From contig OX387204.1 in assembly GCA_947561715.1 (NCBI GenBank), positions 17,737,001-17,801,000 of the forward strand: a stretch of 64,000 nt of DNA. Reading direction: 5' to 3'. The position numbers and the translations under genes were made by a program. Below, one piece after another: positions 2,142 through 57,430 of the stretch (position 1 is its first letter; every line of letters starts with the position of its first letter). The DNA comes from Ascidia mentula. Its lineage: Eukaryota > Chordata > Ascidiacea > Phlebobranchia > Ascidiidae. Under the pieces are notes generated by a model. The model worked only from the letters and a program-made list of their open reading frames with translations. It did not search any database and was not told the origin of the DNA.

Positions 2142-5100
2142 CTACCAACAACATCCTTTTTTCTTGTGATCAGCTAGTGCCTGAATTTCCAACTCGATTG
2201 ATTCGGCGACAATGTTTGCACCAGGTGGCGCCAGAACGTCGTATTTTTCTGCCATTAAAAGCCTGTAGAAAATAACGCTGTTTAGTAAACTTAATAGGGA
2301 TCAAAAGTATTTGGTTTCTTACTTGGTTAGTAACTGAAACGCTTCTTCTACATTTTCTCCCGTTTTTGCGCTCACTAACGAAAATCCAGCTCCAATCTCT
2401 TCCGCCATCTTGCGGCCTGCTTTCCTGCTAATTTCGGGACTGCAGTCAAGTTTGTTTCCAATCAACATGACAACTGTGCGTGTTTTTGTTACCTAAAAAA
2501 TGTCATGTATGTTTTCAGTGTAACTGGACCATAGCATGTCTATCCAGCTGAGCTGTCGCAGCTTAGTCAATAGAGCAGTGACTCGGTGTGTGGAGGGTCG
2601 TGAGTTCAAACCCAACTGGAAGCGTGATTCTTCGTATATCTCAATACTGGCTTTAATCTAACGTGGCTGCGATATAATTTAACCGCATACTTGATATTGG
2701 CAGACGTTTTTTGTAAGTTGGCGGCTGTGCTAAGTGGGCATAGTGACTTCAAGATGCACACGATATATGGCCACATGCGGAAGGAATTCTTAAACGTTCT
2801 GGTAGCATTTTTTCGTGGGTATATTAAGCCTTTAGAAGCTTCATCTACTAAAATCTTCTGAAAGTACGTTTTGATTTTTGTATAAACTTTAATATAATAG
2901 CGAATCTTATCACAAAGTAAATAGTTTTCACTGCAGAATCCAATGAATTGGACCGTATAGCGACATCACCACATACCGTTCACAGACGATTCGAGTTTCT
3001 TTTACAGAGCTTAGCTAAGATATCATCAAAATATACCTCTGCACAACTGATCCAATGACGCACATTTTTTATGCTTTTCTCGTTTGTGACGTCATAAATC
3101 ATCATAATCCCGTCCGCTTTTCGAAAGTAAGATTTGGGGATGCTTCGGAAGCGTTCCTGTCCGGCCGTGTCCCATAATTGCAAGGTTGAAGTCCCGTTAT
3201 CGGTGGTCACGTCTTTAGTTTGATAAGTGATGTCTGGAAACAGTAAAGTGTGAATGCAAATCATGCAAGTGAGTGGGAGGCGAAAAACACCACCTATAGT
3301 TATGCATGAACGATTTGGGATGTTTTTACTAAAAAGGTTCGAACATTTTTTCCAAGATAATTTATTGTTTGAGTCATGTTTCACTTCATCAATATAAAGT
3401 TATTTAACATTTATAAAAGCCAGTAAATGTTTATACACAAGCAATTGCACTCCAGAACAGCAACTTCTGCGATTCGGCAATGTTCACAAAAAAATTTGGA
3501 ATGATCGTTTTATGCGCGCAAACCACCGCCTGCTTCTTTTTCTTCACTGGTAAATTCACAGAAGCACTAGCCAGCAAATGTTTTGTCTGTCATGATTAAA
3601 CATTTTCACGTTTATGCTGTGGCTGACAATGGGGTGAATTTATCAATCACATCACACACGCACGCTCACCCAATGTGGGATTTCGATCGCCAGAAAATTG
3701 ATTTTCACAAAAGCGTTGGATGAGACTCGTCTTCCCCACGTTTGAATCCCCGACCATGATTACTTTGTACGTGTCAGTCGCTGATTGGACGGCTGGTGTC
3801 TCTTCGTCACATTCATACTGGGGACTTTGCACTGCCAAGTTCTAAACGTAAAGGCCATGATCTCTGATACGTTCAGCGCCGCAGTACAAGAGTTAATACG
3901 CGTCAAAATTAGTTTTCTTTTAAAAATACGTTTTTAATCTAAGGCTTCATGCCAAGAGACAAAAATGGCATAAAATGAGTACCATGTTTGCATCATTGTG
4001 GCATTTCTCTCCATCGAGTAATCGTTGCCTGAAAAACATCCTTTTGTTAAAGAAGCAGCAGAAATTGGTTGGACTTTTCCATGGCTATATGCGTTATATG
4101 TTAGGCGCCCTCTCGGCTTAGTTGTAAATTATTAACGTTAAAAAAATTGCGGACAAATTTAAAACTCTTTGGGGTTCACTCAGCCAATTGGCAGATGCAC
4201 GAAAAGGTGTCTCGACTCAATTGGTTTTAACGTAGACAAGTGTTTTGCTGGCAACTGTTTAACAACACTAAGCCAATTTTTGTAATTGAATTACCCTTTG
4301 TTGGTTTATCAAAGTAACCCAAATTTTTCTCTTATACGGGGGAAATATATCGTGTTTTAGAACGCATGAAAGTTTTATCCCAATTATTCAAGGTCATCTG
4401 TCCATTTATACGAACTTTAGGTGTTCCAGTTGGATGTCTGTTGAGGAATTATCTCGGAGGTTTTCCTGCTTTTGTGCAACCGCGTCTTGGAACTCGCGAA
4501 CGATTTCCCTTTTCTCGATTTCGGCTTTCTCGTGCAGCTTTACACAGAGTTCCTGCGAGCGCTGCAGACTGTCCAATGACACGGAGAGTTGCATGTGTAG
4601 TCTGTGGTTTTCCTTTAAATCAATACATACATGTATTAGGCCTTTCTTAGGAGATGGAAACAGTTTCGGCCTACAAGGTCTCATCAGTGCAGTTGGTGAT
4701 TGTGGCACTGAGGTAGCTTTAAAACTAGCACCTAAGGCCTAAACAGTACGTTCACCTGTCCGCATCTCTTAATCATAATTATGGCTCTTTTGCATATATA
4801 TCTTATACTTTGACTTACATTCACTTACACAGTATCAAAAACTTTGTTACCGAAATTAATCAGTCTAATTATAAAAGAAAGAAACGTCTCCGAGGAGTGG
4901 CTAATACGGCTAAAATATTATTTTTACCCTATTGAATAAAGTGCAAACAGGGTTGGCGTGCTGACACGTATGCACATTTTCCACCACATTGTTGTACAGT
5001 TTTACCAAATGTCTGTTACCTGGAGCAAGTCGTCGTTTTCCACCTTCAGTTCGTTCTCTCGACAAGTTAACTCTTCGATCACCTTGTTAAGGTTTCGGAT

Positions 5101-19299: not shown

Positions 19300-22200
19300 T
19301 CAATTCAACAAACAAGCGTTTTCCTCGTCATTTTCGTCTTTGTTCCAGTGCTGTTCCTTTCCGCTTCCGAATGCAATGTACAATATGGTGCCTGCCGCAT
19401 ATATTATGAAGGAGATGATGAACACATAAACCCACGGAGTTCTGGAGACCTGAGACACCGTTTGGAAAGTATTTAACTCTATTCTGATGCGATACAGACA
19501 CTATAAGATAATACAATTGTCGGGCGCAGGTTTCGAAAAGGAATAATGTACATGTGGCATTGAATGGAAACCCCACATAAAAATGTGACGGTGCTGGACC
19601 TTCGTTGAAAATTCTCAAACTTTTAGAGGATGTTATGAGTTTCTTTTAGGGGACTTTTAGAGGATGTTTTGGGTTTCTCCGTTTCAAAACAAACAATTAT
19701 ACAGATGTTATTCATGCTTTCTACAAACTCGCATGGGCCCTGGTGCGCCGTACGGGGTGCACCACCTTTTCGTTAGGCCTGCAGTTACAAATCATCATAC
19801 CGCATTTTCTGTCAAGACGCCAACGAGGAATGGGATAAGGAAGACGGGTATCGTGTTGAGAGTGTTGGATATTCCCATCAGAAGACCCGAATATCTGTGA
19901 AAACAACAAGTTCACGTATTTGTCTGCAACCCCGAGCTAAACACAAAGACAGTTTCCCATTCCCAAGCAAAATATCCCAAATCACGTTAATAAACAAAAA
20001 GGCATTGTTAAATACGTTTTTGGATATAACTTTTAACCGTGTATGGCTTGCTGAACAATTTTTTACATACAAATTTACCTCGGCGCAATATCAACAAGGT
20101 TTGGGAGGGACGACGCTAATTGGATCCCTATGAAACCAGCTGCAGCTGAGATAATGCTTACTGCCACCACACGGTTGCAACCAACAATTCCAGTAACCAC
20201 CATCAGAACTCCCGCACCAGAAGAACCTTAATGAAATCAATTTCAGAAAAAGGCAGATGTTACATAAAGCAGGGCTTCCCAAGTTGGGGATCGCGACTCT
20301 GCAGCAAGACCCTAATATGTCGAATTTTATGAGTCGCAGGAGTCTATGCCACACCAGGTACATTTCGTTGTACCATTTCATGAAGTATACGCTAACTTGA
20401 GTGTTTTTAAGTTGTTTTATTATAACCAACTGTTGCAATAAAATAATAAAATATAACTTACGAACAAACATGAAATTTAAACCAATTTAAATGGGTCGCT
20501 GGTGAAAAAGTTTGGGAAGCCCAAACATTCTTTATACCTACGCTTGCCCACACAAGCCTTGTATTTGTGGTGCTTAAAAGCTGGGACTTTTGCACTTCGT
20601 CTGCGGCAATACCTCCAAATATTAAAGTTAGGAATGTGATTAGGTACGGCAGTGCAGAAATAAAACCATTCTGAAAAAGAGAAGCAAAATGTTAACTTGC
20701 GCAAAATGTAGTTTCATTCAGGCATTTCTGACACTTCTATAATATATATACCATTACCCTTTTCGGTTATCATGTTCCCCTTTACACAAGCGGTACTTCG
20801 TTCACCCCAATGTTGTGCACTGCATTCATTGTTTTATAACATTTTTTTTAAGGGTGAACGTCACTAGTGGTGATATTAAAATTCTGTGAGCTGCATACAA
20901 ATGATGGCCACTGTTTCGGTCTATATAAGGTCTCTTCAGTGCAGCTTGGTGTGACCATGAACGGTCTCACCGGTCAAACAGCCATATATTATATATGATT
21001 CAAACAGGAGTGCTCTCTGACGTAAATTGACGTAATTTATTCTTCCGACGTTTAGTCTGATTTGTGATACGAAGTTTTTTTTAGATTTTATGTGATATTA
21101 AAAGTTGCAAAAACAATTGTCGCATGTCAAAAATATGGATAATTCACCTGAGGAATGGTGAAGCGCAATACTTCCCTGAGATACAAAGGCAAAGATGTGA
21201 CGAGAGTGTAAAGTCCCCACATGTTGATAAACTGTAACACCATTACAGCCCACACGTTTTTGCTCTTAACTATCTCCAACCAGGGAATAGCTGCCGGCCG
21301 GGATGGGGTCTATCGCATAAACAAAAAACATTATTTAAACAGACCGATTAAAATGGGGATATAATAAAAACTACGAATTTAAAGTTCGAAACAATGAGAT
21401 AGCTATTGAGTTGTTGGGAAAACTATACCGACGCAATATTGCTTTCAATATACTCTCGCTCCTGTGATGAAATCCTTGGGTGATTTTCCGGTGTGTCTGA
21501 CACCATGCAAAACCAGAAGATACTCCAAAAAAGACCGACTGAACCTGAGTTCAAATGAAGTGATTTTAACAATGCAAAACATAAAGTAAACTTAGGTGCC
21601 CATTACCAGTTGCAATATCCATATAGTTGTATAAACAATGTGTCGCAAATTTACAATTTTGTGACTTGTAAATCTGTTGTTGATGCGACGTTGGTAACAA
21701 ACGAATAAAATTTAGGTACCAAAGAACAAGGTTGAACTGAGCAATACCCGCGTGCATTCGTGGCATATTAAACGCTTGATAAGAATATTTGAGTATACAG
21801 TGATAACAGTTTTTCATGTATTTTTTTTTTTGTCAGAAGTCAATAGATAAGTATCGATCAGTGACAAACGGTTGCTGAGTTGTGCACATTACAACATGGC
21901 TCAAGTCTAAACGCTGTTCGAACATTTTCGAATTTCGACACCGGAAACGCTTACCGAAGACGTAAAACACAGAAGACCAGCCTCCAAGAACATCAGAGAT
22001 GCTCATAGCTCCCGTAATGGCTTGCGACGCTGCGAAGCCAAGATAGATTCCCGAAAAAGCTATGGAAACCATTTGGCTTCTTTCAAGCGGTGGCGCCCAA
22101 ACTCCAAGCAACGACAGCAACGCAGGAAGCACGACACCCTGATGTCAAAGTATGAACAAATTAGAGATGGAGGATGCTGATCAAGGCGTTACTTCGTACC

Positions 22201-45645: not shown

Positions 45646-48276
45646 TCACTTGATCTGTTCCACTCTTTCAGGGCCTCGTTTAATAATGGCAACTCCCAGA
45701 ATTCCAACGCCCGTGGCCCTGCCTATTTGCTTTACTTCAAAGAAGTGTTCCTGATTAAATTTGTTCTCCTCCTGTGCCTGTTTCTCAATAAGGAATTCAT
45801 CGGGCGTCTTGCCGACCAAGTGTTCTGCTATTTTATCAGGCGTCGCGATCAACATTTCGTTCGGCATTCCGATTTTCTGTCGGAGGATGCCAGTGATCCA
45901 AACATCGTCGACTCGCAGGTACGGTTCGACTCGGGAAAGGTCGTATAACTGGCTGATGACGTCAACACTTGTTGTGTAGAAGCCGCCGAGACAAAATCTT
46001 GGGTAAAATGGCCACCTGTACTCATTAGGTTTAATGAACCACTTTTTGAAAATCCCAGTTGCGTTTCGTACAGGTGAACTGTAGTAGACCTGGCGGTACG
46101 TGCATATGATTGGAAACGTGGGCCACAGTTGCTTAAACTGGCTGTCTCGAGATCGTTGGACAATATTGTAGAACTTCTGAACGTCAACTAGAAAGTCGTC
46201 ATCGCCCGAAGAATAATAAAAAGTCCGGGGAAGATTCTCTGACGCCCATTGCATTCCAGCAAGGGTCTTCAGTGGCACAAACCTATAGTAGAGAAGTTTT
46301 TTATAGACGCGAAAATCAAACAAGGGATGGATTTATCGAAAACATGTTTTGAACACTTTGATTGTTACAGATTGCTGTCATAAATTATGGCCAAATGCTA
46401 AAAATGGGTCATTTTATGGGGCAGAATTTACTGAATGAAAACAGCTCAATTACCAAATTTTTTGGTAAAAATGTTTAACAAACCTCAAAAGAACACAACA
46501 AAGAGACTAAAATAAATTTACTGCAATTGAGGAGATTTATAACCTTGTTTCCGAATTTGCACCCAAATGGCATATTTTTGGACAGGCGTAAATTACTGGG
46601 ATGGCAATATATTATACCTGTACTCATCTGGCCCATCCATTTGTAGGATATCGTTATATTTCCGATGTTCTTCATCCAATAAAATGGCGTCCGTTTCCGA
46701 ATTGGTTTTCGCCACAACAAAAATTGACTTGAACTGGGCGTCCTTGTAAAATTGCGACTTTTGCCACATGGAGCGCACCTGAGCACGATGGAGAAAATGA
46801 TCCGACTTTGATTTGATGAAATTGACCATCGTCCAAGTCACGTCTGTCAGAAAAGTCTCGTTTAAGCGCTATTATTTGTTGTAGTATTTCCTTAGGAATT
46901 TTTCTAGGGATTTATTTTACTTATTATTAATAGCTGGTGAGATCGTCCCCAAAAGTCCCAAAAGCTGCACTGATGATGCTTAGGTGGAAACGGTGGCCCC
47001 AACTGCAGCATATCTCGTTTTTTTTTTGTAAAGAACCAAACTGATACTATTGCCCACGATAGTGAAATATACGAAAACAAGATCGCTACCTTCTGTGCGA
47101 GACAGACGCGTGAGAATGCTGCCGGGTAATATGGAAATCTTTGTGGTTTTCCAAACAGTTGTTTTGGCCATAGTGCGCTCCACGTGGTTCATATCTGTTT
47201 ATTGGTACCTAGTTTGGTACCCAACATATCGACGATTGACCGAAAGGTACCACAAAGTGGAAATCTGTGTGACTGCTAGTCTACCAGCTAGCACAGTGCC
47301 ACTTCAACAGCTGCACTGATGAGACCTTACAGGTCGAAACAGTGTGTACACCTGTCTGCAGCTCTCATTGAATGTTATGGCTCTTTTGCGCATATAATAT
47401 GCTTTGTGGTTTTATTCTGTTACCTACGTATGGTTAGGGATGTGGTTTCGTGGCAATGTTGAAACATGTCCTCAAAACCCACACGTTTATCTTGCACGAA
47501 ACACTGATGTTTTCTCCCAGCTTTATTTGCATTGGCGAAAAAACCAGTTAGAATAATAATTGGTCCCGTTATGCCAAGTAACGATGCTTTTAACCCAAAC
47601 ACTGAGCTTTGTCGTCAAGTGCTTCGTTGCCAGGACAACCGATCCCTAAAAAGCTTTGACTTAAGTCAAGCAGCAGATGTATGTGGCGAGCAAGATATTG
47701 GAAAGATGCTTTTATTCCACGAAACTCTAAATGTTTGGTGTGTATAGAAGAATGATATAGTTACGGACGTTGTGTAATAAAAAACGAACCAAATTGAATT
47801 AAACCGGAAGCATTAAAAAGCAACAAATTTCTGACTATAGCAAATGTTATCCGGCATGTAAAAGTCGATTTTGCTTTATAGTCTGTACAAATAACACAGA
47901 TGATTGTTCGAGTAAAAGTAAACAGTTTGTTTTTCTCTATTGGCTGTTAATTAATATGGCCCGAAGAAAAGTGATGCAACGTCTGAAGATTTCACGGTCT
48001 GATAACTTTTCTTGTTATGCTTGGTATTAGCATTTATCACGTGAATCTCTTGCTGTGCTATGAAAAGTCGTGGCTGCTTTAATATCTCTTATATTATAAT
48101 TCTGCACATAAATATCACAATGGATTGTTCCAGTTAACAGTAAAGACTCACGCGACAAGTTGTTGTAGCTGTTATTCTCACATCGTTGGGTTAAGTAGTC
48201 AGTTGGTTCTTTGAGAAAACGAAATCTCGGTCGAAGAAAGTTCTTGTCCATGTTATTTTCATTGAAATCGTAAGAT
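45646..48276 (-). CDS. GT31 beta-1,3-galactosyltransferase-like protein, copy 2 (first exon not found)
   Basis: Three exons identified: 48152-48276, 46618-46843, 45646-46282, same phases as the other copies. The stem exon reads YDFNENNMDKNFLRPRFRF. The catalytic exons give TMVNFIKSKSDHFLH, KYNDILQMDGPDEYR, LKTLAGMQWASENLP, YSSGDDDFLVDV, WPFYPRFCLGGFYTTSV and RVDDVWITGIL. The C terminus is longer than in the paralogues (about 50 extra residues, EFLIEKQAQEENKFNQEHFF). The expected membrane-anchor exon should lie between 48277 and 50629 but I could not identify it, so the protein is partial here. Intron 2 contains the hammerhead repeat at 46963-47363. Confidence 0.78.
46963..47363 (+). repeat. 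Retrozyme-like unit bounded by two hammerheads
   Basis: Two hammerhead motifs with the same AGCTGCA-CTGATGA opening occur in the same orientation, 346 bp apart (46963 and 47309). The interval has no coding sign. Animal retrozymes are non-autonomous retroelements built of tandem units a few hundred bases long, each with a type I hammerhead; this fits in form. The upstream ribozyme (46963-47009) keeps stem I (six pairs), CTGATGA and GAAA, but stem II is weak and the base expected to be U at the cleavage site is not. Only one full interval is present. Confidence 0.55.
47309..47363 (+). ncRNA. Type I hammerhead ribozyme, apparently complete
   Basis: All invariant parts are present. Stem I AGCTGCA (47309-47315) pairs perfectly over seven bases with TGCAGCT (47357-47363). 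CTGATGA at 47316-47322. Stem II GACCT/AGGTC (323-327 with 331-335 of the 47 kb block), five perfect pairs with a UAC loop. GAAA at 47336-47339. Helix III opens with ACAG/CTGT. Cleavage site UC lies at 47355-47356, so cutting is expected between 47356 and 47357. Predicted to self-cleave when transcribed on the + strand, antisense to the host gene. Confidence 0.85.
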
Positions 48277-50629
48277 CTGCGCCCTCGTATTTTTCCAATG
48301 CTAAAATAGAAATCTTATTCGTTGATGCAATACGTTATTTGTGACTTTCGAGTTAGAGTGACATATCAAAATATTTCTGCGAGACGTCGATTTTTAAGTG
48401 TGTCAGTTGAAAATGTTCTGGGAGTTTCGCGTACTGATTGCCATCGCAATCACACTTGCTAAAATAAAATAAGCGTTTGCCGCAAGGTACTATTTTGGCA
48501 CCTTAAAAACTGTTAAAAACTTGTCATGATACTTAAATAAAAAAGCCAAAGATAATGTTAAAGTTAAAGTAGAAATGTTGAAGCAGACGCTTTAAATCGT
48601 GCCCAACATCAGAGAACCATTGTTAAATGACTGAGACAGACGGAAGCTAAGAGGAGCAAAACGCAAAGATGATAATCACGTGATAACAACTTTCCTGTGA
48701 CGTCATGATGAGCATACAAAATATATCACCGTATACTGATGGTGCCAAGATGCACAAACGTTTTGTACATACAATTATTACTGGAAAGACATTTTGTATT
48801 CAGCACAATACCATGCATCGATGATTTTAATTGGACGTCGCGAACGTTTCGTCCCTTCTCAACATGCTTTTTAACCTGAAAGCCTTTTGTATTGCAAATG
48901 GTCGTCGATATATATGGACTTGGGCGCGCTTCGGTTGATAGGACGTCACTATAAAACGGGCTGTTCGCGTTTGCTTATCGTCAAAGGCGTAACATCGCAA
49001 TATATAACGCGCAGCTTTTGTGTCTAAGGATGACACGCAGATATGTTTGGGGAGAGTCCTCCTAATATTTGCGGGTATTTTATTTTGCTTGCCACAAGAG
49101 CTTATGCCTTACAACGGAACGAAATGGGTTGTGTTTAATGATTTTACAAGATACTCCCCCCAGCCTTTCCTTTACACCTTTTAAACGTGATATCGTATGT
49201 ATAGTCGTCTGAGGGGCCACGAGTTTTATTTACATTAACCGTGGTAATGTTTCCCCATATGTTTTACCGGTTGTGCAATCCCATATAGAGGGCGCGTTTT
49301 TATTCATGTTAGCCCTGATATTTATGTCATAAACTCAGTTATGTTCGAAATGTCTGAAAAATATGTCCAGTATCTTAGCTTTGGATTTCATATTCAAAGT
49401 TGTTCATTAACTCATGCAGCATGTTCTATATTCTAATTACTCTTACCTATTTTGTTGGAACAGGAGGCACAGAGCAGTGAAAAAAACGCTCGAACCGAGC
49501 AGGAACTGCACTTTACGTTTTGACACCATTTGTTTTGGTTTCAGCATTTTTTTAATAAATATAAATCACACAACCTTAATGAAAAATACCGTTGTTAATT
49601 CATCTTATTTTCTTCAAACCATGAAGTATCACCGACGTAATCTTTGCATCTTACATGCTACGTGAGCATTTGTCCTTATTAACTTTTTAACTTGCTATGT
49701 GAAAACTATAGGGATGTAACAAGCCCCTTGAATTTACCACTGCCACGAGCCTATAATTACATTTCACTTCATGTCCGGCACGTTAAACTGATCAACAGCT
49801 CTGTCGAGCCGATCCCGAGGGTGAATGGTTGCTCAACAAAACACTGTCTTGCGTCTCAACTCAACCGTGGCCATCTATGGCAAGGTGTGTCCAGACAGCA
49901 TACGCCCGGAGTGTGATCATTGCCCGTTTCCTCACGTGTCCGGGGTGTTTGATGCGTCAACCCCACAGGTTTTTACGGTATGGAGAAAAGCGTAACTATA
50001 TAGCTCATTGACAGACGATCGTAACATTTATATCTCATATGTATAAGGTTACAGCACCCTTGCAGCACTTTCTAGCTAGACAACGTATGGAATTTGGCAC
50101 CAGGCCTATTTAAAACACACGTAATCCTAGTCATTGCTTAAACTAATGAAAATTACTGCCTCATGTGCGCCATACTTTCTATTACAAACCCTATACATAC
50201 ACCTTGTTGACATCGGCTATACCAATACTTTATGTTTCTTGTTCGTTACCAATAGGTATGCAAAAATGCACATAAGCGTTAAATTAGTCAAGACAAACAT
50301 AAAATACGGAAGACGATCATAAAAGAAATTTCTCATAAATAACCACAGTTATCTCAGACTTTTGTGCTTCAAAATGACAAATCTTGGAAATAAGGGCAGT
50401 TTGGCAGGTGTGGTTGCGAGAACAATAACTGACACAATTTTTGTAATTTCATTTTACTTTGCTAAGTTGGGCGCAACATCAGTTTGTTAAACAAACGAAT
50501 TTGTAGCGTTAAAGAATGTTGGTTATGGTGTAGGATCGTAATGGTTCTGGAAAATCATATTTTCACCTAAAATCTCATGAAACTTTTGTAAAAACAAGAC
50601 AGAGAAATACAACATCTTCCAACATAAAT
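48277..50629. other. Region upstream of GT31 copy 2 and downstream of copy 3
   Basis: About 2.35 kb. It should contain the missing first exon of copy 2 and its promoter. TGACGTCA at 48698. Frames at 48827-49036 (-) and 49414-49665 (+) carry no membrane anchor or known motif. Confidence 0.4.
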
Positions 50630-52246
50630 TTAAAACTTCTCTGAGGAATTTAATTCCACATCTTCGGGCTTGCGAAATGTGATGGGTGGTCCAGAAACGC
50701 CTAAAATCAATTGATCGGGCATCATGATTTTGGCGCGCAAAATTCCTGTGATCCATACGTCGTCTGCGGGTAAGTACCTCTCCCTTGTGGATGCTTCAAA
50801 AAGTTGCTTGACAACCGCCACACTGGTGGTGTAGAATCCTCCGTGGCAAAACTTTGGGTAATAAGGCCATCTGTAATGCACTCCCGGCGCGAATCTCAAT
50901 GACCCGTTTTCAGTCCGTACCGGCGCTTGACCTTGGAGCACCTTGTGGACGCAAGCAATGGGAAACTCGGGCCATTGCTGGGCGGTCACAAGTTTTAAAA
51001 CATTTTCTACGACTCCTTTCAATCTCGTGACGTCGACTTCAGTATCGTCGTTCCCGGATGAGTAGAAGAACTTCCCTGGAAGTCGATTCGAAGCCCATTG
51101 CATGCCGGCGAGTGTTCGTAAGGCGGCGTACCTGTACAAGACTTTAGTTTTTATGGCGTCTCACCAAGAAGAAAACCTGATTCGTGACCAGAATACCCTA
51201 TGTTCAAATCGCGGTGGTTAAAAAAAGAAGTTAATAGTGGCGCAATGTATGTAGGTATTGTTTCTTAACTATATGTAGGTGAAGTATCGAGTAGAAGGAA
51301 TACATGGGATTGTGATTTTTTCTCATTCCTTTTAAATACGTCACCCACCTATCTCCATCCGGGACACCGATCTGCAAAATATCGCCAAAAATTTTCGATT
51401 CTCTTTGCAATCTGTTTTCGAATTCGGGCAAAGGTTTCGCTACAACGAATATTGTCCGGAAACTTGCACCGTTAATCCACCTGCTAGTAGCCCACGTACG
51501 TCGCAGAGAGTCCCGGTTTGCAAAGTTGCTGACTTTCGATTTGATAAAGTTCACCATCGTCCAACGAGTGTCTGCAGAGAATTAGGTTTGGTTTATATTT
51601 CTGTTGATTTGATGAAAGTGGTTAAATTGTTGTGTTATATATGAGGAACTTGTTCTAAGCGGGCCGTATATGTCCATGCTGTGTTTTCTGATGGCGTTTG
51701 CGGCTACGGACGAACAATAATAAATGAACTAATTGTTTTGTACATTCTATAGTTTCTTTTTAAAATATAACTTTACATTATTTATCATGTATCATTATAT
51801 ATAGTTGTGTACGGTGGGGGTTACGATTGTACTTATCTGTGGCTCAACCACACAGGTACAACTGCCAATGTCCCTTTCGTAAGAACCGCTAATAGGCCAA
51901 TGGTTCGGTAACACCACATTGGAGAAATGAATCCACAGACATACTTTGTTGGTAAATGCATTCCATTTTATCGCATGGTCCCGGCTTGACGATCCATGGT
52001 TCCATACCGAACCTGAAGGGCGGGCGTTGAAACGTTTGAGATGATGACGTCATGTTTTCGTTGTAGTCGTACGCGAACGGTCGAAAGTTGCCGTTGTAAC
52101 TTTGCGTGTACGGAAAAATAACGGTGATAATAAACAACTTTGAGTGAAGTGAATATGAGGACTTACCTCAAACTAAATGCGAAAATGAAGATGACGAAAC
52201 AGAGAGAAGTGGTGACAAGGAACAATAAACGTAATTTGCATTTCAT
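50630..52246 (-). CDS. GT31 beta-1,3-galactosyltransferase-like protein, copy 3, altered DxD
   Basis: Four exons: 52167-52246, 51945-52099, 51349-51571, 50630-51131, phases 2-1-2; 319 aa. Type II anchor MKCKLRLLFLVTTSLCFVIF, stem with FAYDYNENM and PPFRFGMEPW, then TMVNFIKSKVSNFANRDSL, RRTWATSRW, FGDILQIGVPDGDR, LRTLAGMQWASNRLP, WPYYPKFCHGGFYTTSV and PADDVWITGIL. The usual DDD reads NDD (YSSGNDDTEVDV), and the DGPDDY block reads VPDGDR, both unlike the other three copies. The C terminus is the shortest. This is the most diverged copy and may have lost or changed activity. All splice signals and the frame are intact, so it is not an evident pseudogene. Confidence 0.82.
51166..51219 (+). repeat. 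SINE-like fragment with B-box-like end
   Basis: agaagaaaacctgat, cgtgaccag and at.ccc recur in order at 63718-63765; here they are followed by tgttcaaatcgcgg, which resembles a tRNA B box. It lies in intron 3 of GT31 copy 3. Confidence 0.45.
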
Positions 52247-54393
52247 TGTTGAAATTTTGCACTTCTGGTAATCCTAGTACTATCTTACAGGCGGCATTTC
52301 TGCGAACGACAACAACATTACACATAATTTTGTCGATCACACATTTAGTGTGCTGTGACCTATGAGCTACCGATTGGACGTTAAATGTTTAAAAGCAACT
52401 GATTTAAAGTAGTCTTATGATCAATAAAATAAAGTTTGCCAGAAGGGCAGTATTCAGCAATAAATATGCCTGGCAGCATCAGTACTGCGGAACATTCTAT
52501 ATCCTAACATACACACTTCTTTTGGCCTGTTTTCAACCAGTCCTAAACAAAACGTCATTAACAAACACCTTTTGCTTTTCTAACGTATACTGATCTTATT
52601 CTATTACGTCACACAACGCCATCAATGTTGTCATCGACCTTCCATAATCTATTTGTCAAGTCTCAAGTTGAAAACATTTCCCCGTTACCATGGCATCGCG
52701 AAACTGGAGCTTGTCAGTCTACATGGCTTTCAAAGGGAAATAATGACTCTTCAGACTGTGTGGCTTTCCGCTTGACTTCAGATGAACCGTGGAATCACGT
52801 ATATACGTTCGTAACACCAACGAGGTGGGGTTTCTTGGGGCGACACACCCTCTGTTTCACGCGTGATTGGGCCTCAATACGTATTTAACGCAGAATGGAC
52901 GATTTCTTATCCTTGATGTCGCAGGGGATTTGTAACTTGCTTCTACATCATACTTTCTGTCCAACGTATAATAAACCTTAAGGCGTTGGTGCATGATTAT
53001 TTACATCACGAATCCGCAATGTGAACTTTAAACGATCCTTAACCAAACGCACAAAAGAATAAAAACACGTGTTGAAATCAAACTATCCTTATCATCCACG
53101 TGATCCAATTCTAGCTAATTTCGCAGTCGCTCAACGTGGAATTCAAAGTTTTCTTTTCTCGGAATTCGAGTTAATTTTGTTTCGAACCAACTTTTCGCTA
53201 AAGAGAATTTCCCTGTTCTCATTCACGGTGCGTCGGTTACAGAACTAGATCTGCCCTAGTACAACCTTTAGCATGTCGACAACCTTTAGAATGCAACGAC
53301 CCAAGGTCAACGACCTAAATTAAAACATACATAGAGCCACTGAATCTAGGTTGGTGGAGGTTGTTTTGATTCTTTAATCCAGTGCTTCCATTGGTGGGTC
53401 GCAAAGCTATTTCAGGTGGCTCGCGAAGCATTTCTGAATGTTACAGTTTTCTATTAGATCACGAACAATGCATGTGTATACATTGTGTTTTTTTTCTCAT
53501 TAAATTCTTTTTCATTCGTTTGGTCATATCTCATTGTGGGTCGCACAATAAAACTTGCATTAAGAGTGAGTCGCGAACTGAAAAAGGTTGGGAAGCACTG
53601 CTTTAATCCACACGAAACAAAATAACCGTCACTATAAGTTTTCAGTAAACTCGCATAACCTACAGGTACAGCCAAGTGCACCAGAAGTTTGGTGTGTTTT
53701 GTTTATTTACATTACTGCTATTTTCCTAATTGAGCTTAACCTGTTAGGATGATTATAGGATGAAGGCGTCACATGCCAGGGCCATACCATGTATCTGTTA
53801 AAATTGTAGTTCATTTATCCTGACAGAGAGAACAGGCCTTATTTCCTTTTTTTGCCCTTTACCAAATTTATCTGAAGTTGATGCAAGACGAAATATTAAA
53901 AACAACAAACACAATATAGAAACAAAAATGTTGGTATTTCAGCCGAAATAATTTAAAACGACGATACAGCATGGTTCATACTATTGACCAGCACACAAAA
54001 TACAACAATAAGTTATCAGTTCGAACATGAAAAAGTACGCCAATGTTTTTCGCCTGTTTACCGCAGTAACAGCGGGCATTGGACCTGAACGAATGTGAAA
54101 AATCTAAATCTAACACGAAGCTTAGTCAGCATCAAAAGCAAGCAGCGTTTGCATCCTATTGTTACATAGAATATCACCCTTACTCAATAATTAGTATGGC
54201 GGCAGATTTATTGGAAAGGGAATTTGCATTTCATTTGCCGACAACCAAGTGTTTTCGGGAGTCACCTTGTGGCGGATGAAAATAAATATATTGAAAATTG
54301 CATGTCCTTCAAACTATCCAGAAGCTTGATATTTTTTGTATCTTATTTCGTCTTTACCTCTTTTGTTTCCCAACCGCGTGGGAAAGCGCATTG
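52247..54393. other. Intergenic between GT31 copies 3 and 4
   Basis: About 2.1 kb without a supported gene; contains a well-defined hAT MITE (next entry). The stretch next to 52246 should hold the copy 3 promoter. Confidence 0.4.
53380..53600. mobile_element. hAT-type MITE with perfect 8-bp target duplication
   Basis: The 221-bp element has ends CAGTGCTTCC and GGAAGCACTG, exact inverted repeats of ten bases, and is flanked on both sides by CTTTAATC (53372-53379 and 53601-53608). gggtcgca strings near both ends resemble those in the 20270-20523 element, so the two may be relatives. No transposase. Confidence 0.85.
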
Positions 54394-56875
54394 CTACGCC
54401 TCCATGTTAGGCATGACAGCTATAAACTTAAGCAAAGCTTTTGAAGTTTCATTTTTATGTAATTTTGTTTCGTTGAGTTTGGATATGAGTTGTCCGACGC
54501 CGTGAAAAGCTATTTTCTCTGAAGGTTCGATCACCATAGTGTCCGGCATGCCCAGTTTCAATCGTAATACGCCGGTTATCCAAACATCGTCGACACGCAG
54601 GTAGGGAGTGGTCCTCGCGGCTTCTAAAAGCAGTTTCACCACTCGGACGCTGGTCGAGTAAAACCCGCCGAAGCAGCCACGCGGGAAAAACGGCCACTTG
54701 TACTCGCTTTTTGCAATGTACCACTGCTTGTACCTCCCCGTCATATTGCGATACGGCCTCGTGAAGTCCATAGTTCTGTACGTGCAAATGATGGGGAATT
54801 CGACCCAGTCGTGCTTGGTCGAAATGTCGATGTACTCATTCATAACTTTGTGCAAACGGTCGACCATCACCATGACATCATCGTCGCCGGAGGAGTAGTA
54901 ATGGTCGCGCGATAACTTGTCCACAGCCCACTGCATACCGGCCATTGTCTTCAACGGAACGTATCTGTCATTACAAACAAATGTGCAGCTAACATTAAGT
55001 CTGTTTATAAAGAGACTGGTTCATGGTGTTGAAGACATTAACTTGTTTTAGTTATTTTAAAGACGTTTAGGCAAAAAAATCCTATCATCGGTTCAAAATT
55101 GCGGGGTTGGTCTATCTTCATAGTTTAGACAGAGCTGGCCTGATTGACGTCACAGAACGTAGATAATGCTCACGTGGGTGGCGACGTCATGCATCATTGA
55201 TATCAGTGACTCACATAGAAGCGGAAAAAACAATTAACACGCAGTAAAAGGCACAGTGACAGTACATTAAATATAAACAGAGGAGCTGAGGTATACTGCC
55301 CATATTAAAATGTGGCTGCTGTTGTATGTTTTTTGCAGTATTGATTAGTCTCTCCATTCTCTGAATTATTGAGTAAATTATTAGTGTTTCTTAGTCTGTT
55401 TACTTTTTGCAAATGCTGTAGGCCTATTCTAACCTAATCAAGCTTTTTTGCTGTTACGATTTATAGAAAACCGCACATTTTTTAAAATCCCTGTATGTCG
55501 GGTGCTGGTATTTCCTCACATGGTGTTTTACAAAAACCCGTTGACCTCATTATAATGGAGCAAAAAGTCAATTGCCAATTTTTAATGTTATACTTTTGGA
55601 AAGCAAATATTTGTACAAAATGACCCTTCACAAAAACTATTAAAAGAAACTAATTCGTTAATGGGGCTTCTAGGGCCATTTTATAGCGTATATCTTTTTA
55701 ACGGCAAGCAAACATTCGACATACTTGTAGTCATCAGGGCCATCGTACTGTAAAATGTCTCCATAAATCTTCTGCTCCATCCGTAGCTGAGTTTCAATGA
55801 TAATATCGTTGGACATCCCCACGACAAAAACATTGTCGAATCGCGAACCATTATAGTAAGTCTTGTGTGCCCACATGCGACGGAGGTCGTTTCGGTGTTC
55901 GGAGTGATTCGCTTTCGACTTCACAAAATTTACCATGCACCAACTTGAATCTGTGATATTTAAACATGTTACTCGAAAATGCTTGCAAGGGAATTTGCAA
56001 TTTCGTCAGTATTCATGGGACTTTGGAATTGTAATCGTGTACCAACAGAAAACCTTCAAAATTGTGTGAAGAAAATTAGGAACAACGAGAAACGTAAAGT
56101 AATTTCGCACGTGGTCACTATTTTACTGACTTGGGGGTATTCCCGTCCTACAGCTTCGTCGGTGAACATGTCTAGGTTCGATGAGATATTGAAAGTTAGG
56201 CCTCACGAAGTTGTAGCCGATGATTTTCTCGTCGAAATCGTACGCCAGGCGTTCGTTAAGCTTCACAACAGCCGAGTTGTTCAACGTTCGTCTGCTTCTA
56301 ATTGACTGGCGTTCAACTTGTCTGTAGAACATAATTCAAAGCGTACTCAATTAGGTGACTAATCTGCCTCGTTGTCGTTTTACGTCACTTCCTTATCCTT
56401 GTGTTGTTTGTTATTATCGCAACGCTCTTGATGGTCCGTGTTCATTTGGGGATCAGATTGAAAGAGAATGAAAATGCTTTGACACCAATGAGCTTTTTAA
56501 TTTAGTTTACTGGTTTTGCGCAATGCTAATGTTGTCAACAATTGTTTCCTCTGTTAATGCTGATTTTTCGAGTTTAACCAGCGCGCATTTATTCAATTTG
56601 CCTCATGGCAGACGAAACGTCGTTTGAATAAAAAAAAAATTTTCCTGATTGTCAAAAGACCATCAGCCCTCAACAATTACATTACACATGGAAGCAACAG
56701 TAGCAGAATATTGGTTTAATCCGTAGCGTAATCCACATTATTTCAATAAATGGATGAAATTAATACAACGTTCATCTTACCTTAGACTTCGAGTGATCTG
56801 AGTCCAATAAACGAACCACGATGTTGTTAACAGAAGAAACACCATCGACATTCGAATTTTCGTCAGCAGTTTCAT
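54394..56875 (-). CDS. GT31 beta-1,3-galactosyltransferase-like protein, copy 4
   Basis: Four exons: 56781-56875, 56131-56321, 55725-55950, 54394-54964, phases 2-1-2; 360 aa. Exon 1 is a type II anchor (MKLLTKIRMSMVFLLLTTSW, then FVYW). The stem contains LAYDFDEKIIGYNFVRPNF. The catalytic part has MVNFVKSKANHSEH, DLRRMWAHK, YGDILQYDGPDDYK, LKTMAGMQWAVDKL, YSSGDDDVMVMV, WPFFPRGCFGGFYSTSV and RVDDVWITGVL. The last exon has exactly the same length (571 bp) as in copy 1, and the two share ICTYRT, PYRN and TG-YK strings, making them the closest pair by eye. Two NET/NMT sequons could be N-glycosylated. Introns contain TGACGTCA (55145) and a retroelement-end relic (56595-56633). Confidence 0.88.
56595..56633 (+). 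repeat. Penelope-like 3' end relic in GT31 copy 4 intron 1
   Basis: cctcatggcagacgaaacgt followed by cgtttgaataaa has the layout of the hammerhead-plus-AATAAA terminus seen at 57389-57430, with palindromic ACGT after GAA, but a degraded core. Confidence 0.4.
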
Positions 56876-57388: not shown

Positions 57389-57430
57389 CGCACGAGCTTT
57401 CGCGAGATTGATCTCGCTTCATCAGGTGCA
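57389..57430 (-). ncRNA. Hammerhead-like motif at the retroelement terminus
   Basis: On the - strand: 5' TGCAC (57430-57426) pairs with GTGCG (57393-57389). CTGATGA at 57425-57419, one unpaired A, stem II GCGAGA/TCTCGC with loop TCAA, GAA, helix III palindrome AGCT, cleavage site UC before GTGCG; AATAAA follows. Hammerheads with minimal helix III are known from Penelope-like elements. Short stem I and the bulge make activity uncertain. Confidence 0.55.

What the first reader, a model, noticed from the sequence alone, without database searches (positions are those of the whole stretch)
47309..47363. Sequence-complete type I hammerhead ribozyme in a GT31 intron
Every element of the hammerhead consensus is present and internally complementary: 7-bp perfect stem I, CUGAUGA, 5-bp perfect stem II, GAAA, a closing helix III and a UC cleavage site abutting stem I. 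The joint chance of the two cores plus two independent perfect stems is negligible. It lies antisense in an intron of a glycosyltransferase gene.
Basis: partly seen in the sequence, partly recalled or inferred. Interest (0 to 1): 0.85.

Follow-up and report, generated by a model that had tools for sequence, protein, structure and literature searches.

The report
Self-cutting RNA in a jumping element
The sequence is a well-formed hammerhead self-cutting RNA, but it belongs to a small mobile element present in thousands of copies in this sea-squirt-type (tunicate) genome, and the way copies end in the DNA suggests they are moved by Penelope-type retrotransposons.

Summary
In detail: 47309-47363 (+) holds every element of a type I hammerhead ribozyme, although it misses Rfam's gathering thresholds. 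It is not a lone intronic ribozyme but one copy of a repeat: a loose hammerhead pattern occurs 2,335 times in the 196-Mb genome against 27 for the reversed control. The window copy is a 251-bp insertion (47151-47401) with a perfect 12-bp target-site duplication, in a GT31 intron on the strand opposite to the gene. Full units are 285-293 nt, in tandem or head-to-head arrays: a metazoan non-LTR retrozyme. The host reads as a tunicate (COX1 code). The less ordinary result is in the insertion ends. In 17 independent insertions with 11-15-bp duplications, every one has a 3' end about 35-48 nt past the ribozyme cut; in 9 of 9 head-to-head ones the opposite outer end lies 9-16 nt past it. Penelope-like elements (PLEs) of the same genome show one short and one long end in 11 of 11 pairs fetched. 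This matches the published PLE "tail" and supports, without proving, that PLEs mobilise retrozymes, a point reviews leave open. No RNA or cleavage data; no retrozyme-PLE sequence similarity found.

The parts
47309..47363 (+). type I hammerhead ribozyme; predicted cleavage 47356/47357
   Evidence: sequence; fold; sub-threshold Rfam hammerhead matches; own model R1, built partly from this copy, 77.2 bits
47316..47322 (+). core CTGATGA
47323..47335 (+). stem-loop II GACCT-TAC-AGGTC
47336..47339 (+). core GAAA (last A pairs in stem III)
47339..47355 (+). stem-loop III ACAG...CTGT
47151..47401 (+). retrozyme monomer, 5'-truncated (family A unit position 83 to 293, then 1 to about 44, counted from the ribozyme cut)
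   Evidence: 93.6% identical to the family A unit of L068; bounds from the target-site duplication
47139..47150 (.). target-site duplication, left copy CTTTGTGGTTTT
   Evidence: (family D5)
47402..47413 (.). target-site duplication, right copy CTTTGTGGTTTT
   Evidence: (family D5)
47387..47401 (+). outer 3' end of the insertion, 45 nt past the ribozyme cut in the window (unit position 44 by projection): the long-end class
46593..46868 (-). GT31 exon on the other strand, downstream of the insertion in gene direction
   Evidence: Pfam Galactosyl_T E 2.4e-6
45649..46332 (-). GT31 exon (catalytic part)
   Evidence: Pfam Galactosyl_T E 3.1e-18
48030..48314 (-). putative upstream exon of the same gene; places the insertion in an intron
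   Evidence: no Pfam match; similar to the corresponding open frame of the neighbouring paralogue, E 2e-6

Best explanation
The site is one 5'-truncated copy of a tunicate non-LTR retrozyme: a non-autonomous element of 285-293 nt per unit whose RNA carries a type I hammerhead. Proposed cycle: tandem copies are transcribed; the hammerhead cuts the RNA at GTC/TGCAG (inferred); some RNA with the cut junction intact or re-sealed, an uncut multimer or a circle, is bound by the reverse transcriptase/GIY-YIG endonuclease of a Penelope-like element; that enzyme cuts AT-rich DNA with a stagger of about 12 bp and starts copying at two internal sites about 12 and 40 nt past the ribozyme cut, one for each target end, leaving head-to-head copies with one short and one long end and a 12-13-bp duplication. 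Shown here from sequence: the ribozyme motif, the repeat family, duplications, two classes of ends, tandem and head-to-head structure, PLEs with intact open frames and the same one-short-one-long anatomy in the same genome. Inferred: cleavage, circularisation, and that a PLE protein is the mobiliser. The copy in the window is probably inert for the GT31 gene.
For: Genome-wide repeat: 2,335 pattern matches vs 27 control. Tandem 285-nt array of 5.9 copies at 99% flanked by 12-bp duplication ATAACACCTAAT. Of 60 insertion clusters examined (10 overlapping loci left out first), 24 share a flank word of 11 bp or more; for mismatched flanks the fraction is 1.8% of 2351, itself inflated by duplicated loci. 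After removing 1 artefact (L004), 2 segmental duplicates (L021, L037) and 4 copies of one older insertion inside another repeat (L041, L043, L044, L045), 17 insertions remain, duplications 11-15 bp (mean 12.5; 78% AT against 62% in the window). 17 of 17 have a 3' end at +35 to +48 from the ribozyme cut; 9 of 9 head-to-head ones have the other outer end at +9 to +16; 0 of these 26 ends lie at the cut (positions uncertain by a few nt because of microhomology and indels). PLEs: 121 GIY-YIG matches (150 of 382 candidates scored), open frames up to 892 aa; two frames scanned hold RVT_1 plus GIY-YIG. 11 of 11 PLE head-to-head pairs fetched have one short and one long end, counted from a hammerhead-like motif: P1 +74/75 and +111 to +117 (6 pairs), P2 +19 to +55 and +82 to +84 (5 pairs); duplications 12-14 bp, against 2 of 110 mismatched flank pairs with a word of 10 or more. 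Published hallmarks agree: a 31-bp tail at one of the inverted pLTRs with a 9-bp duplication (PMC3846280, passages); two adjacent internal RT start sites that correspond to the tail, called unique to PLEs (PMC11167929, main text).
Against: No significant similarity between retrozyme and PLE tail sequences (shuffle p 0.095-0.81), so no donor PLE is identified. No RNA data. In family A, units within arrays are hardly more alike than units of different arrays (2.0% vs 2.5% difference), so a circular template is not shown; L002 (identical) and the B array L067 (99%) are compatible with it. P2 short ends are scattered (+19, +44, +49, +53, +55). 36 of 60 clusters lack a duplication of 11 bp; in family A most of their 3' ends fall in the same two classes, but some do not (among them L003, L018, L028, L059), and in family B they were not resolved (match ends at 20, 28, 29 and others). 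Stem covariation is nil: 0 of 16 pairs changed on both sides. Loci are best BLAST hits and the first pattern hits of one contig, not a random sample. No LINE insertions of this genome were examined as a negative control.
Confidence: 0.78

Rival explanations
1. A retrozyme mobilised by a LINE (target-primed reverse transcription, with head-to-head copies produced by twin priming) rather than by a PLE.
For: LINEs also give duplications of this size and 5' truncation (general knowledge); published work names LINEs or PLEs.
Against: Twin priming is expected to give a variable outer end for the inverted piece (general knowledge); here it lies at +9 to +16 in 9 of 9. By eye no poly(A) or simple-repeat tail sits at the 3' ends printed. 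PLEs of the same genome show the same asymmetry. LINE insertions themselves were not examined.
Confidence: 0.12
2. An intronic hammerhead kept for a host function, for example control of the GT31 gene or of an antisense transcript.
For: All core and stem positions of this copy are intact.
Against: It lies on the strand opposite to the gene; it sits in a mobile insertion with an intact duplication; related copies lie on nine contigs and the motif is found thousands of times.
Confidence: 0.02
3. A chance or decayed hammerhead-like motif with no activity.
For: Below Rfam gathering scores; fold energy ordinary; no covariation.
Against: The full motif recurs: of 94 motif occurrences collected (core required by the search, overlapping loci counted more than once), 36 are one identical sequence with all 7 stem I pairs; pattern 2,335 vs 27.
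Confidence: 0.05

Closest known systems
Metazoan non-LTR retrozymes (Cervera and de la Pena 2020, PMC7229834)
   Same: Type I hammerhead in short repeats (published 150-450 bp), tandem, thousands of copies, duplications longer than 4 bp, PLEs in the same genome.
   Different: A tunicate: 'tunicate', 'ascidian' and 'Ciona' do not occur in that paper's main text; head-to-head copies and a two-site end anatomy, which the sections read do not describe; stem II loop only 3 nt; circular RNA not tested here.
Penelope-like elements with hammerheads and pLTRs (PMC3846280; PMC11167929)
   Same: Head-to-head terminal copies, tail on one side only, short duplications, AT-rich targets.
   Different: No PLE protein is encoded in a 285-293-nt unit; a 4-bp stem III, whereas PLE hammerheads are described as minimal variants lacking helix III; two ends closer to the ribozyme cut (about +12/+40 against +75/+113 and about +50/+84 in PLEs of this genome).
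SMalpha-type SINE-like elements of schistosomes (named in a passage of PMC8490949; hammerhead link recalled)
   Same: Short dispersed non-autonomous repeat related to hammerheads, according to recall.
   Different: Not compared by sequence here.
Plant LTR retrozymes (PMC4918200, search listing only)
   Same: Non-autonomous retroelement with hammerheads.
   Different: Plant ones have LTRs, type III hammerheads and 4-bp duplications (as stated in PMC7229834).

Membership tests
type I hammerhead ribozyme | CUGANGA and GAAA cores joined by three helices | tested here: met
type I hammerhead ribozyme | UH cleavage dinucleotide next to stem I; chain ends at stem I, helices II and III closed | tested here: met
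   GTC then TGCAGCT
type I hammerhead ribozyme | Rfam gathering score (a detection threshold, not a structural feature) | tested here: not met
   RF00163 search of the genome uninformative
type I hammerhead ribozyme | covariation in the stems | tested here: inconclusive
   copies too alike: 0 of 16 pairs changed on both sides
type I hammerhead ribozyme | loop 1-loop 2 tertiary contact | not tested
   loop II is only TAC; contacts were not modelled
type I hammerhead ribozyme | self-cleavage | not testable with these tools
   needs an in vitro assay
metazoan non-LTR retrozyme | type I hammerhead inside a repeat of about 150-450 bp | tested here: met
   293-nt (L068) and 285/286-nt (L067) units
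metazoan non-LTR retrozyme | tandem multimers in the genome | tested here: met
   5.9 copies in L067; short arrays in L068, L071, L072
metazoan non-LTR retrozyme | target-site duplication longer than 4 bp | tested here: met
   11-15 bp in 17 insertions
metazoan non-LTR retrozyme | no LTR, primer-binding site or polypurine tract | not tested
   no dedicated search made
metazoan non-LTR retrozyme | expressed as linear and circular RNA | not testable with these tools
   no RNA data
mobilised by PLE machinery | two discrete 3' end sites, one on each side of head-to-head insertions (tail) | tested here: met
   9 of 9 with a clear duplication; PLE comparison 11 of 11 pairs fetched
mobilised by PLE machinery | PLEs with intact RT and GIY-YIG frames in the genome | tested here: met
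mobilised by PLE machinery | sequence shared with a PLE at the RT start region | tested here: inconclusive
   no significant similarity to two PLE families; other families not compared statistically

The most novel reading that the evidence does not exclude
Animal retrozymes are satellites of Penelope-like elements: their insertions carry the PLE two-site tail, so a PLE reverse transcriptase starts internally at about +12 and +40 on a retrozyme RNA whose ribozyme junction is intact or re-sealed, which would identify the long-sought mobiliser and make the retrozyme cycle testable in vitro.
Probability: 0.72. Interest if true: 0.65.

Novelty: new member of a known kind. Interest (0 to 1): 0.55.

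Why it matters
The ribozyme itself is an ordinary retrozyme ribozyme, in a host group for which I saw only a count of 9 Rfam-type loci in print. The end anatomy matters more: which enzyme moves animal retrozymes is given as open in the passages read (LINEs or PLEs). A two-end signature shared by retrozymes and PLEs of one genome is genomic evidence on that question, and it predicts the RNA positions at which a purified PLE protein should start copying.

Tried and rejected
Host function in the GT31 gene: rejected, since the ribozyme is on the other strand and inside a mobile insertion. Covariation as support: tried on 11 chosen copies, nil; the invariant core in that alignment is no evidence, because the search that collected the copies required it. 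Circular-template test by within-array homogeneity (12 pairs within arrays, family A): inconclusive (that script stopped with an error before its last part, and the window copy was not among its 36 projected copies). Sequence link between retrozyme and PLE tails: no significant similarity, p 0.095-0.81; the two retrozyme tails resemble each other (p 0.012) and the two PLE tails each other (p 0.028). Rfam on the retrozyme-bearing loci L067 and L072: no hammerhead family listed at E 0.1 or better; mir-50 and MIR2680 rows in L072 lie on inverted-repeat arms. L041, L043, L044 and L045 first looked like separate insertions; with L042, L046, L050 and L051 they are copies of a larger repeat (shared stretches up to about 2.9 kb within loci of 3.2 kb) that carries one older retrozyme insertion, so they were dropped from the count of 17 (that insertion itself shows ends at +11 to +14 and +39). 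A first pass on PLE ends gave a wrong shared word for the pair L088/L089 and a wrong offset for L103, because its window was too wide or its motif search failed; one search replaced it. The first hammerhead-collecting regex missed most of family A and was replaced.

Full report
1. Observation. The stretch 47309-47363 (+) contains the stated hammerhead elements at the stated places, and the minimum-energy folds of the 55-nt piece and of the 251-nt element around it contain that junction, though the energy alone is not exceptional. Rfam gives no match at gathering score and two weak hammerhead matches below it. The type I family model rang nowhere, not even in the tool's control genomes, so it decides nothing.

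2. It is a repeat. A 281-base query has 81 listed matches in the genome (40 of 2009 candidates scored), the best besides itself at 91-95% over about 200 bases, on nine contigs. A loose hammerhead pattern gives 1154 + 1181 matches against 16 + 11 for the reversed pattern. Two families were looked at: A, 293-nt unit (the window's), and B, 285/286-nt unit. They share a 35-nt ribozyme stretch at 94% and a 63-column stretch at 78%. One B array holds 5.9 units at 99%; four columns differ among its five complete units, each in one unit only.

3. The copy in the window. It spans 47151-47401 and is flanked by a perfect 12-bp duplication CTTTGTGGTTTT. It begins at unit position 83 and ends 45 nt past the ribozyme cut in the window (unit position 44 by projection), so it lacks nearly 40 nt of the unit and has a single ribozyme; on its own it could cut but not release a circle (inference). 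It lies between a GT31 exon at 46593-46868 and a putative upstream exon at 48030-48314, both on the minus strand, so the gene's pre-mRNA carries only the reverse complement.

4. Host. COX1 (contig C79; stretch fetched) gives the residues expected from recalled COX1 sequences only if AGA/AGG are read as glycine, the tunicate mitochondrial code. Three of six contig ends fetched read TTAGGG repeats, the other three read N. The species was not identified.

5. Insertion ends. The loci are top BLAST hits of the window copy, the first 30 pattern hits of one contig, and some larger stretches around them. Ten overlapping loci were left out, as were clusters under about 60 bp or close to a locus end; 60 clusters remained. 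Of these, 24 share a flank word of 11 bp or more, against 1.8% of 2351 mismatched flank pairs. Seven were dropped (L004 artefact; L021 and L037 segmental duplicates; L041, L043, L044, L045 one older insertion inside a larger repeat), leaving 17. All 17 have a long end (+35 to +48 from the cut). Nine are head-to-head (L002, L006, L009, L014, L020, L030, L035, L067, L069), and all nine have a short end (+9 to +16) on the other side; the eight others (the window copy among them) have a 5' truncation there. Positions are uncertain by a few nt. If each outer end chose freely, nine of nine mixed pairs would have probability 1 in 512 (my arithmetic). No 3' end of the 26 is at the ribozyme cut, so the copied RNA ran across the cut site: either a re-sealed circle or an uncut multimer (inference). 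Of the 36 clusters without such a duplication, those of family A mostly end in the same two classes, with exceptions (among them L003, L018, L028, L059); those of family B were not resolved.

6. PLEs of the same genome. There are 121 GIY-YIG matches (150 of 382 candidates scored), some with open frames of 801-892 aa; two frames scanned hold a reverse transcriptase and a GIY-YIG domain. For two families the outer ends of 11 head-to-head pairs were fetched (with L079 and L080). All 11 have 12-14-bp duplications (2 of 110 mismatched pairs have a shared word of 10 or more) and one short plus one long end, counted from a hammerhead-like motif not shown to be active: P1 +74/75 and +111 to +117; P2 +19, +44, +49, +53, +55 and +82 to +84. 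Other pairs in the list were not fetched.

7. Comparison with print. PLE papers describe a 31-bp tail optionally present on one of the inverted pLTRs, with a 9-bp duplication in the example given (PMC3846280, passages only), and two adjacent internal RT start sites that correspond to the tail (PMC11167929, outline and main text). Retrozyme papers describe short type I hammerhead repeats and call PLEs a strong candidate mobiliser (PMC7229834, outline, results parts 1-2 of 3, discussion and passages; PMC7761336, passages); a 2024 review still says LINEs or PLEs (PMC11722881, passages). The searches listed no paper whose title or shown abstract start reports a tail signature in retrozymes; most listed papers were not opened, and the library lacks most subscription journals, among them two PLE-hammerhead papers asked for. 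For tunicates I saw only 9 type I hammerhead loci reported in Didemnum vexillum (PMC8704543, passage).

8. Verdict. A real hammerhead motif in an ordinary retrozyme copy; the value lies in the insertion ends, which tie retrozymes to PLE-type integration. Sequence similarity between retrozyme and PLE start regions was sought and not found, so the donor PLE is unknown, and no biochemical step is shown.

Noticed in passing
20889-20946 (-): A second well-preserved retrozyme hammerhead, closest to family B (model R1 51.2 bits).
   Followed up: partly
4652-4800 (-/+): Older head-to-head family A retrozyme remnant; its ribozyme matches model R1 at 28.7 bits.
   Followed up: partly
46963-47010 (+): Decayed hammerhead (model R1 27.4 bits) about 346 bp upstream of the main one; by eye its stem I is still complementary.
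   Followed up: partly
57398-57425 (-) and flanks: CTGATGAAGCGAGATCAATCTCGCGAAA motif, by eye nearly identical to the stretch after the stop codon of a PLE at L081: probably a PLE end fragment.
   Followed up: partly
52421-52484: Fragment 93% identical to a dispersed repeat with a different hammerhead-like motif (L076).
   Followed up: no
L041-L046, L050, L051: A larger repeat (shared stretches up to about 2.9 kb) carries an embedded head-to-head retrozyme insertion and has multiplied with it.
   Followed up: partly
L020 1501-1790: A retrozyme inserted about 0.6 kb downstream of a PLE open frame (737 aa), with duplication TAACATGTTTTA.
   Followed up: partly
window 45649-46332, 50633-51160, 54394-55020 (-): At least three GT31 (Galactosyl_T) genes in a row on the minus strand.
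   Followed up: partly
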